From the NCBI GenBank assembly GCA_900095095.1, contig FMBT01000290.1:992001-1056000 (forward strand): 64,000 bases of DNA. The letters are read 5' to 3'. Below, in pieces: positions 16,705 through 42,161 of this stretch; the stretch's first letter is position 1, and the number at the start of each line of letters is the position of its first letter. Both the position numbers and the translations under genes were made by a program. The DNA comes from Fragilariopsis cylindrus CCMP1102 (Eukaryota > Bacillariophyta > Bacillariophyceae > Bacillariales > Bacillariaceae). The notes beneath the pieces were generated by a model, which worked only from the letters and a program-made list of their open reading frames with translations, searched no databases and was not told the DNA's origin.

Positions 16705-19700
16705 TTAACACCAAACATCTTGGAGGTATCGATTGTTTCCTTGTAATGCATCATAGAATGCAATAGCATCGCTTTCCGACATGTTTCCACATTCTCTAGC
16801 GATTCGATGCAATATATTGTCAACATCTTTTGCCATGTATCGGCCATCACCACAAATATAAATGTATGCTTTTTCTTCTTTAAGATATTTCCAAACACGG
16901 TCCCGATTGGACCACAACAAGTCTTGGACATATTTCTTTTTAGTATTTGGCGTGGTAGGACGAGAAAATGCAACATGTAATTCTATTGGAGCAGATTCCA
17001 ACTCGGATCGATACAAGTAATCTTGTTCATTGCGACAACCAAAGAAAAGCATAGCGGGACGACGACGACGTGTTTCTTTCTCTTCTGCTTCTATTGCTTG
17101 ATAGAAACCTCTAAATGGAGCTATACCCGTACCAGGTCCAATCATAATTACTGGAGTGGAAGGATTCTCTGGAAGTCTAAATCTATCATTGGTTCCGATA
17201 CTAATCTCAACGAGTTGTCCTGGACGTATTTCTTGCAAAAATCCAGATGATACACCTCGATATTCTTTGGAATCCAAATATGTGAACGCGGACGATTCGA
17301 CTGTTTTTTCGATACCCTTAACTAATGCAACAGTCACAGTAGCAACATTCAGTCCCCCTGAATTTTGAGAAACGGTTGGACTACTGGAGATTGAATAATA
17401 ACGTTTTTTCATCGGAGCAACAGTAGCAAGGAATTTTCCCAGGGACATTCTGGTAGATGGAAATGCCAGAAGGACTTGAGCTGGACGTAATTCTTGCAAA
17501 TTACCTGCGACTCCATTACGAATAAGCTTTGAAATTTCTTCCAAAGCTTCACGGTCCTTCAAGCAGCTTGTCGACTCTGCTGCTAAACTGACAAAAGCAG
17601 CCGATGCAGGAGCCTGTAAATCGACATGACGAGAAAGGAGGTCTGAAACTCTAACTGGAACATCAAAAGGAAGATGACCCATACCTCGTGACTGTTGTGG
17701 TTGACTGCCGTTACTGATATTAGTAGAGGAAACCTTAACAGTTCGTCCGAGATCATGTTCATTGAGTAGAGATGCAATTTGAAGAACAAGTTCGCAATTA
17801 TTCTCAGGAAATACAGCAATATGATCACCTTCACGATAGTTCATTCCATTTGGAAGTTTCAATTCGATGTGACGTGTACTACGATCTGATGTAGAACATT
17901 GTAATTCACGTGCTGATATAACCGTAGCAAGTTTAGTATCACCTGAACGAGGAATAACGGTGGCTTGCTCAAAAGTATCAGTCAAATTCAATTCTGGTAC
18001 ATCGCTTATACAATCAGAATCAGAACTGATCTGTGCTGGATCTAATCCAATAGCTTCGAATGCTGAAGGCCAAAACTCAAACTGACGCCAAGCGCCAACA
18101 TCATTTTTTAGATCTTTCTCTTCGTCAGCAATCCCTCTTGGACATATAATGTCTGCTCCAGCAGATTCAAGCGCGTTAACAATGGAACACGGGAAAGATT
18201 GAAAGCTTTTCCAATTAGAGTTTCCTACACCACAAATTGCCACCTTAACTCCTGATAGTGATCCTGGTTGGAGTGTTTTCAAATATTCAGCAAATTTCTT
18301 GGCATTATCAGGTGGTTGACCATTGTACGTTGATGTAACAATGAGGTTTATACATTCTCTACCTAGGCCTTTTGAAGAAGCAGCATCAAGTGGATCTAGT
18401 GAAGTATCGAATCCCATTCGAATAGCTTCATCACACAACGCACTGGATATGTCTTCACACGTTCCCATGTTGGAACCAAAGTAGACACTAACTTTTCCAT
18501 CGTGTGGTTCAATGTTAAGTACGGAAGAAAATGATGTGGTCGATGCAGAAGAAAAGGAAAATGATGTGGTCGATGAAGAAGAAATATGTTCCGGAGTAGC
18601 TTTCACAGGACTTGGTACGGGAGAAAAAACTTCACTTCCATTTGATTCGTGCGAAGTCATCATTACATTACTTAATTTCATAAACTGAACAAAGATTAAT
18701 ATAGAGATTGAAAAAGTTAGAATTTAGGAAAAGATACTATTTAATACAAAAAAAGGCATTTCAAAACTTACCGTGCGGAATTTTTCCCCAACTTCGGCGT
18801 CTTTGTGAAGTCTGAAAGTGATTCGTCGTTGCATAATACGAGCCAGTATGACTCGCGCTTCAATCAAAGAGAATTGCATACCAATACACCCACGAGGACC
18901 AGATGAAAAAGGCATCCAAGCGTGCTCATGTGAAGGTGCATTTAGCGAGTTTAGCATAAATCGTGATGGATCAAACTCATCAGCATTATCACCCCACAGA
19001 GTTTTATTTCTATGTAGTTCTCTGGGAAGCAACAGGACCTTACAGCCTTCCGTCATTGTATAAGGACCTAGCGTTGTGTCCTTCATGCATGTTTTCAAAA
19101 TAGCCTGTGCTGGAGGATACAGTCTTAGAGTCTCTTTAATGACAGCCATTGTGTATGGCAGATTCTTGATATTTTGCATATCCGGAGGTTCTTCACCCAT
19201 TACTTGATCGACCTCGTTTCTCATCTTTTCTTCCACTTCAGGATGCTGGGATAGCAAGAACATGAGTGATGTTAGAAGCGATGAGGTTGAATCGTGACCA
19301 ACTAGTAAGAAAAGTATTAGATTATTCCTCACTAATTCAATATCCATTTTTTCGTTTGTTCCTTTATTATTATAATAGTCATATTTTGAATACAAGTAGT
19401 CATATAGGAAGAAAGAAAATGTTAGATGCATAAAATGCATAAAAAATACAGAACGTGCGCTGCTAATGGTATTATTATTCTGAACATACCTTTATCAATC
19501 GTATTGAGCATACAATCTAGAACATCAGGATTATTTGGACCACCAATACTCATCGTTTTCCCATCGAGACGATCATTTATGACTTCCATGCCACGTTCCC
19601 ATAACGTATGCTTTGCTTCTTGCCTTTTCTTATATAATTTGCGATGCGTAAATCGTCCATCATCAAATCGATCTTCAATATGTGTGGAATTAAGTGCTGT

Positions 19701-39163: not shown

Positions 39164-40363
39164 CTACCATTTTCGAAGTTTTAAAGGTACGTAAGTTTTT
39201 GGTACCAAATTTAGGGCTGTTTCAATTTGATTGGCCCATTTTTTTGGTTCTAATTTTGCTACTGACATCCAGTTGTTTAGTTGATCTGTTTCAAAGTGCA
39301 GGCTGTCAATGAGTGTGTTGCTCAAACTAGTAGAAATATGTTGTTGTTGGCCGCCTTGTTTTCTAGCTTTCTTGTAAATCCAAGAAAGTAAGGTATTCCG
39401 GGGCCCTCGTTTACAACTCATTAGTGCTAATTTTTCCAGCCATCTTGCTCTTCTAAGTTCAAGAGATTGATGAAATGTATAACAATTATTAAGTTCCTCT
39501 CTAACTTGTGCGTTTGAGATGTGATGGTCTTTTACATCATAGATTGTAATTCCTACCATTTTTCTAAGAAATCTGTGGTGACAGACTTCTAACTTCCTTC
39601 GTAGCTCTTCTGTTAGCGCCCAACTTTCGCATCCCCATAGGAGAATATTGATCACTGTAGCATCATATAGTCGAACTCGTAATTTTGTTGATATTTCTTT
39701 ATTGCATAATACTCGTTTCATTGTAGCAAACGCGCCGGTTGCCTGATTGATTCGTCGTTGTATGTCATAGTCGTCTTTCAACGACAGTGTAAAGATACTA
39801 CCTAGATATTTGAATTTATCACAGTATGAAAAGAATTCGTGTTCGTTTATTTGTATATCTGCTGTGTCTGTTGCTGTTGCTATTTTTCCTGGAGGAGGAA
39901 AGAACATTGCTTCTGTCTTCGAGCTACCATCATTCCTTCTATCACCACAATGGACTGTAAGTCCAAATCTAGTGAAATGTGATTTAATGAGTTTCGAAGC
40001 TTCTTCAATATCTTTTCTCGACAAGAAAAGATAGGCGGTGTCATCAACATAGTAAGATTTCCAGAATGAAAATGCAGTGCCAATTGTTGAATTGGATACT
40101 TTATTTCTTAGACTGGGGTTGTACTTTACACCACTACCGTCTTTCTTCAGAGAATGTCTTCTAAAATCAGGTGTGGAGAAGGTCCACTTCTTATCAAGTG
40201 TTGATGATACAGCTTGGATTAGTAGAATAAATAAAATTGGACCGAGGTTATCACCTTGCTTTACACCTACTGTTCCTTCAATTTCGACTTCTTCTTCTCC
40301 TACAGTACTGTATCGAATCACGTGACGTGCTCTCAACAGCCAGGTATAAAGATCCAATCCCAT
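39164..40363 (-). mobile_element. 5'-truncated non-LTR (LINE) retrotransposon, reverse transcriptase C-terminal part
   Basis: An uninterrupted 399-codon frame. It begins within reverse transcriptase, just before GTVGVKQGDNLGPILFIL (the GVxQGD-x-L-x-P-x-LF block), and then carries YYVDDTAYLF, the catalytic YVDD box. Further blocks are FKYLGSIFT and LLWGCESWAL, and it then runs through the thumb and the C-terminal tail seen in LINE elements (HHRFLRKMVGI, RRARWLEKLAL). A TGA lies directly upstream of the first ATG, and no endonuclease or upstream RT blocks are found. This fits the 5' truncation produced by LINE insertion. The lack of internal stops suggests a fairly recent insertion or retained coding. 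Target-site duplications were not identified; a GA-rich run lies at about 39089-39100 beyond the 3' end. Confidence 0.88.
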
Positions 40364-40625: not shown

Positions 40626-42161
40626 ATGAAGGCTATGAAACAACATCAGCAGCTGCGGCAAGAAATATTGTCCGGCACTAGTAATACCATCGTCGTCATG
40701 AGGATGACGACCAAGATGATGATATCGATAATGATAATTCTATTATGCCCCAATAATAACAACGAAGGAGTATCAGCACTATTACAACACAGACTCGTCC
40801 ATCATCTTCCTACGTCAAAAAAACATATTAGCAGAAGCAGAAGCAGTAGTTACAATAGCATCCCTGCCTGTATCAGAGAACGGCAACCGACGACGACGTC
40901 AATGCTGATGACTACTAGCGACAAAAACGCCGCCGCCGCCACCGCTGCTGCTGCTACCACCACAACCGCAGACGTCAACAATAATAATAAAAACAATGAT
41001 ACTGATAATGATGACAAGACAAAGAAGAAACAAAATAAGACAAAGAAGAAACAAAATAAGACAAAGAAGACACAAAAGGGCGACGACGATGGAAAAGAAA
41101 ATGGTATATTTACAAAATCATTTTATAAGGAATTTAATGAATTATTAAAATATCGTCGGGATGTACGTCGATTTTATACAAATGATAGAAAACCAGTAAG
41201 TGAAAAATTAATCTATCAATTATTAAATACTGCCTTTACTACATCCCCGAGTGTTGGATTATCGGAACCATGGAAGATTCTACATGTCAAAAGCCAAATA
41301 GCAAAAACAAATGTGATCAATAATTTTGAAAAATGTAATCAAGATGCATTACAAGGATATAATAGTTCTAATAATGATGAAGGAGGTAGTAGTACTACTA
41401 CTACTAATAGTAAAGCAGAATTATATTCCAAATTAAAATTAAGTGGCTTGCAGGATGCACCAATACATATCGCAATCTATTGCAATGATGCCACCACCAA
41501 AGGATCCGGATTAGGGATACAAACAATGCCAGAAATGAAACAATATAGTTGTGTTTGTGGTATCATGTCATTTTGGTTATTAGCACGATCCAAAGGTATT
41601 GGTTGTGGTTGGGTCTCAATATTAGATCCAAAACAATTAATAATTGATTTAAATTTAAAAGAAGACGACGATTGGACATTGATAGGATATTTATGTGTTG
41701 GATATCCAAACTTAGATGATGATAATGATGATGATATCAAAGATAATGATATCAAAGATAATTATGACGACGATAGTGTTGTAGATGGTACTAGTGGTAT
41801 AATTTCACGTAGTAAAAGAAGTTCTACACCAGAACTTGAACTATATGGGTGGAAAAAGCGACGGCGGGGAGGACGAAAACAAAAACAAAAGCAAAAAGAA
41901 CAAATGCTGCAAGATTCTTCTGCGGCAGATAAAGAATCAGTATCACCAGTATCAGCATCAGCATCAGCATCAGCATCAGCATCAATAACTAACGGCAGCA
42001 GCAGTAACAATAACTACCTAGACCATGACTTCGAGGACAGCTTCGATGACGATGATGACGATGACGATGATGACGACGAGGATGATGACGACGAGGATGA
42101 CGACGAGGATGATGATAATGACAGTTACGATGAACGAGAATTACCAATAATAATTGTATAG
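40626..42161 (+). CDS. BluB-like 5,6-dimethylbenzimidazole synthase/nitroreductase-fold protein (511 aa)
   Basis: Residues about 163-362 match the BluB subgroup of the nitroreductase fold: LLKYRRDVRRFYT, FTTSPSVGLSEPWKI, a LKLSGLQDAPIHIAIYCND block, YSCVCGIMSFWLLARSKGIG, CGWVSILDPKQL and LIGYLCVGYPN. In Sinorhizobium BluB (recalled, D32 and S167) an Asp and a Ser are needed to cleave FMNH2 to 5,6-dimethylbenzimidazole, the lower ligand of B12. Asp179 (RRD) and Ser331 (GWVS) sit at matching places. The N-terminal ~160 residues are poor in order (hydrophobic MMISIMIILLCP, then Ala/Thr runs and Lys/Gln repeats), so targeting is possible but unclear. A ~19-residue insert sits in the loop before KAELYSKL. 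The C-terminal ~150 residues are Ser/Ala and Asp/Glu repeats. Related iodotyrosine deiodinases are less similar. No other B12 gene is in the window. Confidence 0.85.
   Translation: MKAMKQHQQLRQEILSGTSNTIVVMRMTTKMMISIMIILLCPNNNNEGVSALLQHRLVHHLPTSKKHISRSRSSSYNSIPACIRERQPTTTSMLMTTSDKNAAAATAAAATTTTADVNNNNKNNDTDNDDKTKKKQNKTKKKQNKTKKTQKGDDDGKENGIFTKSFYKEFNELLKYRRDVRRFYTNDRKPVSEKLIYQLLNTAFTTSPSVGLSEPWKILHVKSQIAKTNVINNFEKCNQDALQGYNSSNNDEGGSSTTTTNSKAELYSKLKLSGLQDAPIHIAIYCNDATTKGSGLGIQTMPEMKQYSCVCGIMSFWLLARSKGIGCGWVSILDPKQLIIDLNLKEDDDWTLIGYLCVGYPNLDDDNDDDIKDNDIKDNYDDDSVVDGTSGIISRSKRSSTPELELYGWKKRRRGGRKQKQKQKEQMLQDSSAADKESVSPVSASASASASASITNGSSSNNNYLDHDFEDSFDDDDDDDDDDDEDDDDEDDDEDDDNDSYDERELPIIIV

What the first reader, a model, noticed from the sequence alone, without database searches (positions are those of the whole stretch)
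40626..42161. BluB-like dimethylbenzimidazole synthase in a eukaryote, with long low-complexity ends
The core has both RRDVRRF and GWVSI blocks with the Asp and Ser expected for BluB, plus SPSVGLSEPW. BluB destroys FMN to make the B12 lower ligand. Diatoms generally import B12, so an own source of the ligand would support remodelling of pseudocobalamin from cyanobacteria. The extended, repeat-rich termini are unlike bacterial BluB. Whether it is known in this lineage I cannot say.
Basis: partly seen in the sequence, partly recalled or inferred. Interest (0 to 1): 0.75.

Follow-up and report, generated by a model that had tools for sequence, protein, structure and literature searches.

The report
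Diatom BluB, the B12-ligand enzyme
A polar diatom's nuclear genome carries a bacterial-derived gene for making the lower part of vitamin B12, apparently part of a nearly complete set of genes for rebuilding scavenged B12 look-alikes into true B12; the gene itself was already reported from this species.

Summary
Window 40626-42161 (+) is one open frame of 511 aa whose middle is BluB: NCBIfam TIGR02476 187.7 bits (cut-off 150), predicted fold closest to solved BluB 2isj, catalytic Asp and Ser kept, tree placement with Rhodobacterales BluB, apart from the genome's own nitroreductases. The genome is very probably Fragilariopsis cylindrus (an ice-binding protein matches PDB 6a8k at 100% over 251 aa). 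bluB of this species is already in print as a transfer from alphaproteobacteria, so the gene is known. The 'ends' are a presequence that looks plastid-directing, a spacer before the conserved BluB tail, and an acidic tail.

What I add: the same genome has CobT, CobS, CobU, a cobalamin adenosyltransferase, CbiZ and CbiB, plus MetH and MetE. CbiZ-CbiB is one spliced gene model; CobS-CobT looks like one gene (one frame break inside CobS); CobU lies about 3 kb away. Helliwell et al. 2016 could not find cbiZ or cbiB in the algal genomes they analysed, and remodelling algae needed added DMB. The most likely role is home-made DMB for pseudocobalamin remodelling or cobinamide salvage. No activity was tested; no alpha-ribazole phosphatase reached its cut-off.

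The parts
40626..42161 (+). BluB-like 5,6-dimethylbenzimidazole synthase, single open frame, 511 aa, no intron needed
   Evidence: translation; TIGR02476 187.7 bits
40704..40913 (+). N-terminal presequence from Met27 (A at -3), end approximate: hydrophobic MMISIMIILLC, then GVSA|LLQHR and a basic, Ser/Thr-rich, acid-poor stretch; reads like a diatom bipartite plastid signal with Leu at +1 (judged by eye)
   Evidence: hydropathy and Met contexts; rule for diatom plastid signals in PMC6723447, passage read
41109..41720 (+). BluB domain, residues 162-365, profile positions 1-184 of 205
   Evidence: AlphaFold2 core model pLDDT 91, Foldseek best 2isj E 2.4e-16
41160..41162 (+). Asp179, aligned with D35 of chain 2isj
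   Evidence: D in 90 of 90 other BluB rows, S/T/T in 3 own nitroreductases
41361..41411 (+). low-complexity insertion inside the domain, mostly absent from the 10 bacterial rows of A1
   Evidence: alignment A1; local pLDDT dip to 65
41616..41618 (+). Ser331, aligned with S170 of chain 2isj
   Evidence: S in 90 of 90 other BluB rows, T/E/T in 3 own nitroreductases
41709..41825 (+). acidic low-complexity spacer before the conserved tail (residues 362-400)
   Evidence: 39 residues against 5 in the 30 bacterial rows that could be measured
41826..41852 (+). conserved BluB tail motif TPELELYGW, residues 401-409
   Evidence: PELE..GW in 41 of 80 bacterial rows
42015..42158 (+). Asp/Glu-rich C-terminal tail (start approximate)
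   Evidence: translation

Best explanation
The gene is a nuclear, horizontally acquired BluB of a polar diatom (very probably F. cylindrus). The protein is probably imported into the plastid (inferred), where reduced FMN and O2 are at hand, and breaks FMN to give 5,6-dimethylbenzimidazole (DMB). CobT activates DMB to alpha-ribazole phosphate and CobS joins it to GDP-activated cobinamide made by CobU. CbiZ strips the lower loop from taken-up cobamides such as pseudocobalamin and CbiB rebuilds the aminopropanol arm, so the set would turn foreign or damaged corrinoids into true B12 without outside DMB. Shown here: the genes, their domains, catalytic residues, predicted fold, ancestry. Inferred: activity, compartment, flux and substrate (enzyme roles from established knowledge of these families).
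For: BluB identity. Grouping with Rhodobacterales BluB: SH-aLRT 98, bootstrap 100 / SH-aLRT 97. Partner genes over their Pfam cut-offs in the same assembly: CobT 309.9 bits, CobS 121.9, CobU 108.7, adenosyltransferase 177.3, CbiZ 114, CbiB 151.9. Spliced CbiZ-CbiB model, 807 aa, CbiZ 128.4 and CbiB 240.3 bits in one chain; CbiB also over its NCBIfam cut-off, 171 against 165.9. MetH to use the product. Not bacterial contamination: contig C91 is 1.24 Mb and carries an ice-binding-protein match, a reverse-transcriptase-like fragment lies next to BluB, and partner genes are modelled with GT-AG introns.
Against: No enzyme assay or expression data seen. CobS has one frame break in this assembly and its two pieces stay below the NCBIfam cut-offs. 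CobT scores 300.9, under the NCBIfam cut-off 319.3. CbiZ's only NCBIfam match is bifunctional CbiS at 51.9 against 250. No CobC over its cut-off: 28 matches, best 74.9 against 162.9. The plastid signal was judged by eye. MetE is present, so the cell need not depend on B12. The BluB row is long-branched and compositionally odd, and nested-in versus next-to Rhodobacterales is undecided. T. pseudonana, another diatom, does not appear to remodel (PMC4850488).
Confidence: 0.78

Rival explanations
1. True BluB, but its DMB serves only salvage of incomplete corrinoids (cobinamide) and repair of B12 that has lost its lower ligand, not remodelling of intact pseudocobalamin. This overlaps with the best explanation in all but the substrate, so the two odds are not exclusive.
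For: CobU, CobT, CobS and BluB alone suffice for this. I recall the Vancaester 2020 abstract speaking of 'scavenging and repair' genes; the paper is not held.
Against: CbiZ and CbiB together are the pair that PMC4850488 (passage) names for pseudocobalamin remodelling in R. sphaeroides; pure cobinamide salvage would not need CbiZ.
Confidence: 0.3
2. A nitroreductase-family flavoprotein of BluB descent that has taken a new function in the diatom, for example another flavin or aromatic chemistry.
For: Long branch, odd composition, in-domain insertion and long spacer.
Against: The window row shares all 36 columns that are invariant over the 46 rows of A2, Asp and Ser among them; equivalog score well over cut-off; partner pathway present.
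Confidence: 0.08
3. Another nitroreductase or iodotyrosine deiodinase misread as BluB.
For: Shared Pfam family.
Against: Three own nitroreductases lack both residues and fall outside with support 100; IYD scores far lower by sequence and fold (2.4e-9 against 2.4e-16).
Confidence: 0.01
4. Bacterial contamination or a decayed copy in the assembly.
For: The BluB frame has no intron, and Roseobacter-group bacteria live with diatoms (general knowledge).
Against: 1.24-Mb contig with an ice-binding match, diatom-like presequence and low complexity, at most 55% identity to the bacterial rows, no stop in 511 codons, and bluB stated for three diatoms in PMC12803021.
Confidence: 0.02

Closest known systems
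bluB reported in F. cylindrus, P. multistriata and P. multiseries (Vancaester 2020, as cited in PMC12803021)
   Same: Very probably the same gene; alphaproteobacterial origin agrees with my trees.
   Different: My trees narrow the kin to Rhodobacterales; I did not see the 2020 paper, so I cannot say which partner genes it lists.
BluB with solved structure (2isj, 2isk, 2isl; recalled as S. meliloti)
   Same: Predicted fold, catalytic Asp and Ser, core blocks.
   Different: No presequence, no in-domain low-complexity insertion, no acidic tail; 29% identity in the fold match.
Nuclear BluB and CobT transcripts of the haptophyte B. bigelowii (PMC12903740, passage read)
   Same: Eukaryotic BluB with CobT, proposed for remodelling cyanobacterial pseudocobalamin.
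   Different: That passage says the alga encodes no other cobamide enzymes; this genome also has CobS, CobU, CbiZ, CbiB.
Pseudocobalamin remodelling in Rhodobacter sphaeroides (CbiZ, CbiB)
   Same: Same two families, here on one gene model, plus BluB, CobU, CobT, CobS.
   Different: Eukaryotic, nuclear, with apparent fusions and modelled introns; no activity shown.
Remodelling algae C. reinhardtii and Pavlova lutheri (PMC4850488, passages)
   Same: COBT and COBS.
   Different: They used pseudocobalamin with added DMB, and no cbiZ or cbiB was found in the algal genomes analysed there; this genome has BluB, CbiZ and CbiB.

Membership tests
BluB (TIGR02476) | score over the curated equivalog cut-off | tested here: met
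   187.7 bits against 150
BluB (TIGR02476) | catalytic Asp32 and Ser167 (S. meliloti numbering and role recalled) | tested here: met
   aligned to chain D35/S170 of 2isj; both in 90 of 90 other BluB rows
BluB (TIGR02476) | groups with BluB, not with other nitroreductases | tested here: met
   support 100 against 3 own nitroreductases (3 of the 5 other matches used)
BluB (TIGR02476) | BluB fold (predicted model) | tested here: met
   2isj first of 292 matches, E 2.4e-16, next 2.0e-10
BluB (TIGR02476) | makes DMB from reduced FMN and O2 | not testable with these tools
   needs an assay
Iodotyrosine deiodinase / other nitroreductase | closest sequence and fold match | tested here: not met
   BluB is closer by sequence and fold
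Cobamide remodelling pathway (CbiZ route) | CbiZ and CbiB | tested here: met
   both over Pfam cut-offs; CbiZ has no NCBIfam match over cut-off
Cobamide remodelling pathway (CbiZ route) | CobU and CobT | tested here: met
   (Pfam cut-offs); CobT below the NCBIfam cut-off, 300.9 against 319.3
Cobamide remodelling pathway (CbiZ route) | intact CobS | tested here: inconclusive
   two pieces cover profile 4-160 and 159-206, about six bases apart in different frames
Cobamide remodelling pathway (CbiZ route) | alpha-ribazole phosphatase CobC | tested here: inconclusive
   28 matches, none over cut-off
Cobamide remodelling pathway (CbiZ route) | turns pseudocobalamin into cobalamin | not testable with these tools
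   needs axenic growth and mass spectrometry
Diatom plastid-targeted protein | signal peptide, aromatic or Leu at +1, hydrophilic transit peptide | tested here: inconclusive
   pattern seen by eye, rule from PMC6723447; no predictor run

The most novel reading that the evidence does not exclude
A photosynthetic eukaryote with a self-sufficient cobamide remodelling route: a CbiZ-CbiB fusion takes pseudocobalamin apart, CobU and a CobS-CobT fusion rebuild it, and a plastid BluB supplies DMB from FMN, so a Southern Ocean diatom could live on cyanobacterial or damaged corrinoids without outside DMB. CbiZ and CbiB in an alga would be contrary to the published search of algal genomes (PMC4850488).
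Probability: 0.55. Interest if true: 0.75.

Novelty: already known. Interest (0 to 1): 0.48.

Why it matters
B12 supply limits phytoplankton in parts of the Southern Ocean (recalled), and cyanobacteria mostly make pseudocobalamin, which the algae tested use poorly; some use it when given DMB (PMC4850488, passages). A polar diatom with its own DMB source and both remodelling enzymes makes a direct test possible: does an axenic F. cylindrus culture use pseudocobalamin with no DMB added, and is that lost when BluB or CbiZ is removed? The gene itself being known lowers the novelty of the locus, not the value of the test.

Tried and rejected
Viral contigs gave no relative. The phage and metagenome collections were not searched for BluB. 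No collection of eukaryotic genomes was at hand, so other diatom BluB could not be put in the tree; nested-in versus next-to Rhodobacterales is undecided (AU p 0.49). A bacterial counterpart of CbiZ-CbiB was sought only in plasmids: 153 records matched, 0 covered 80% of the query, and the 15 rows listed match the CbiB part alone; the two domains together span about 75% of the query and 138 rows were not seen, so a bacterial fusion is not excluded. The second CobS copy (C127) is identical to C679 over 3,381 bases and so does not check the frame break. A literature check of 6A8K found nothing; that 6a8k is from F. cylindrus is recalled. Genes for the corrin ring, CBA1, methylmalonyl-CoA mutase and CbiR were not searched; the 12 genome searches went to other families. 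Papers: passages only of PMC4850488, PMC7287063, PMC12803021, PMC12903740, PMC5634323, PMC6723447, PMC4057078, PMC3476827, PMC10828217 and PMC9545926; the rest as search listings. That I found no report of cbiZ or cbiB in diatoms rests on searches in an open-licence library; only one search used the word CbiZ. Vancaester 2020 could not be read.

Full report
What is there. The frame at 40626-42161 (+) is open for 511 codons. It scores 187.7 bits against the BluB equivalog model TIGR02476, cut-off 150, over residues 162-365, and 57.1 bits against Pfam Nitroreductase. Of 14 PDB sequences matched at E up to 1, BluB 2isj leads at 5.4e-24; a nitroreductase-like protein follows at 1.1e-4 and iodotyrosine deiodinases at 0.0049 and weaker.

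Catalytic residues and fold. The alignment puts Asp179 and Ser331 on chain positions 35 and 170 of 2isj, which I recall as D32 and S167 of the native enzyme after a three-residue tag. In a MAFFT alignment of 94 rows both are kept in 90 of 90 other BluB rows (80 from genomes, 10 from plasmids), while three of the diatom's own nitroreductases (of the five other matches) have S, T, T and T, E, T. The AlphaFold2 core model (46 rows, mean pLDDT 91.0) matches 2isj first, E 2.4e-16, then other nitroreductases at 2.0e-10 and weaker and IYD at 2.4e-9.

Ancestry. A quick tree of 94 rows sets BluB apart from the own nitroreductases (100) and puts the window row with 35 Rhodobacterales and that one alphaproteobacterium (SH-aLRT 98). 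A careful tree of 90 rows (3 nitroreductases and the long Thermus row L026 left out) gives 100/97 for a set of 35 Rhodobacterales, one unclassified row and the window row; the bootstrap had not settled. The window row is long (1.87 and 2.75) and compositionally odd, and a tree holding the Rhodobacterales together without it is not rejected (p 0.49), so 'within' versus 'next to' Rhodobacterales is open. The sample holds no other eukaryote.

The ends. From Met27, which has A at -3, the protein starts with a hydrophobic stretch (MMISIMIILLC), then GVSA-LLQHR and a stretch with 11 basic and 1 acidic residue in 46. That fits the rule quoted in PMC6723447 (passage): signal peptide, an aromatic residue or leucine, hydrophilic transit peptide. 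I judged this by eye. At the other end, the conserved bacterial tail PELE..GW (41 of 80 bacterial rows) is present as TPELELYGW at 401-409, after a 39-residue acidic spacer; in the 30 bacterial rows where the spacer could be measured it is 5. A run of Asp/Glu follows. Low complexity is common in this window: median 7% over 26 mechanical open frames, BluB about a third and third highest.

Which organism. The own assembly has 67.9 Mb in 818 contigs, the window being C91:992001-1056000. It holds 53 matches to the ice-binding family, some of them pieces of one gene, and PDB chain 6a8k ('Ice binding protein 1') matches at 100% over 251 aa. I recall 6a8k as F. cylindrus; one search found no paper to confirm this. 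The published FALCON assembly of F. cylindrus has 59.7 Mb primary plus 9.1 Mb alternate contigs, 745 and 288 of them, longest 1.26 Mb (PMC5634323, passages); C91 is 1.24 Mb. The contig count differs, so this is not shown to be that assembly. F. cylindrus is very likely; an unsampled close relative is not excluded.

The partner genes. In the same assembly: CobT on C679, 309.9 bits; CobS directly upstream on the same strand, 121.9 plus 28.5 bits. A single 553-aa open frame holds the end of CobS and all of CobT, so the two look fused. CobS changes frame once: profile 4-160 and 159-206 are met about six bases apart, which leaves no room for an intron; an assembly indel is the simplest reading, a real break the other. 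The haplotig C127 is identical here and gives no check. By NCBIfam, CobT (300.9 against 319.3) and the CobS pieces stay under their cut-offs. CobU lies about 3 kb away on the other strand, is modelled with a GT-AG intron whose exact ends are open, and carries a C-terminal DUF4346. Between them lie two overlapping open frames of transporter look; Pfam matches are weak and below cut-off (DUF4079, BT1).

CbiZ and CbiB. CbiZ is found on C288, C451 and C126 (114, 96.3 and 76.9 bits, cut-off 27), with CbiB just downstream on all three. C288 is 97.5% identical to C126 and 94.9% to C451 over the region, as for haplotypes. A model with two GT-AG introns reads as one 807-aa protein holding CbiZ (128.4 bits) and CbiB (240.3 bits); NCBIfam gives CbiB 171 against 165.9, and for the CbiZ part only CbiS at 51.9 against 250. 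PMC4850488 (passages) says neither gene could be found in the algal genomes analysed there. Among 153 plasmid records with a match none covers 80% of the protein and the 15 listed match CbiB alone; that does not exclude a bacterial fusion.

Rest of B12 metabolism. A cobalamin adenosyltransferase with a DUF5522 domain sits on C91 some 349 kb from BluB. MetH is present on C608 and C128, MetE in several exons on C751 and C548 with no single piece over the whole-protein cut-off. CobC: 28 matches to TIGR03162, none over cut-off. Corrin-ring genes were not searched.

Reading. The simplest account is a working BluB, taken from a Rhodobacterales-like bacterium, feeding DMB to CobT and CobS; with CobU, CbiB and CbiZ this could rebuild pseudocobalamin or cobinamide as cobalamin. 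The remodelling algae of PMC4850488 were given DMB. The haptophyte B. bigelowii has BluB and CobT transcripts but, according to PMC12903740 (passage), no other cobamide enzyme.

What is already known. PMC12803021 (passages) states that bluB in F. cylindrus, P. multistriata and P. multiseries came by transfer from alphaproteobacteria (Vancaester 2020), and that cobU, under a relaxed filter, is a transferred gene in seven diatoms including F. cylindrus. I recall that the 2020 abstract speaks of five consecutive late cobalamin genes with the full suite in F. cylindrus; I could not read it. The BluB locus is thus known. Whether the CbiZ-CbiB and CobS-CobT gene models are in print I cannot tell; my open-licence searches showed no such report.

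Noticed in passing
G000 C288:49080-51840 (L128), also C451 and C126: Spliced gene model (built on C288) joining CbiZ and CbiB in one 807-aa protein; the other two haplotype-like copies show the same order.
   Followed up: yes
G000 C679:605094-607456 (L011:5094-7456, - strand): CobS and CobT apparently on one gene, with a single frame break inside CobS.
   Followed up: partly
G000 C679:600906-602100 (L011:906-2100): CobU with a modelled intron and a C-terminal DUF4346 domain, about 3 kb from CobS-CobT; transporter-like open frames lie between.
   Followed up: partly
G000, 53 places: Large set of ice-binding-protein matches, one of them on the BluB contig.
   Followed up: partly
window 39164-40363 (-): Reverse-transcriptase-like fragment (RVT_1, 24.7 bits, below cut-off) about 260 bases upstream of the BluB start.
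   Followed up: no
window 16705-19491 (-): Cytochrome P450 part followed on the same strand by a flavodoxin/FAD/NAD reductase part; possibly one self-sufficient P450.
   Followed up: no
G000 C91:682056-684074 (-): Cobalamin adenosyltransferase in a 673-aa open frame with an N-terminal DUF5522.
   Followed up: no
L022:2614-4145 (Pseudorhodobacter turbinis plasmid): A Rhodobacterales bluB lies between rpsP-like and rimM-like frames rather than in a B12 operon (names by eye).
   Followed up: no
G000 C608 and C128: Two MetH matches side by side on each contig, apparently a tandem pair on two haplotypes.
   Followed up: no
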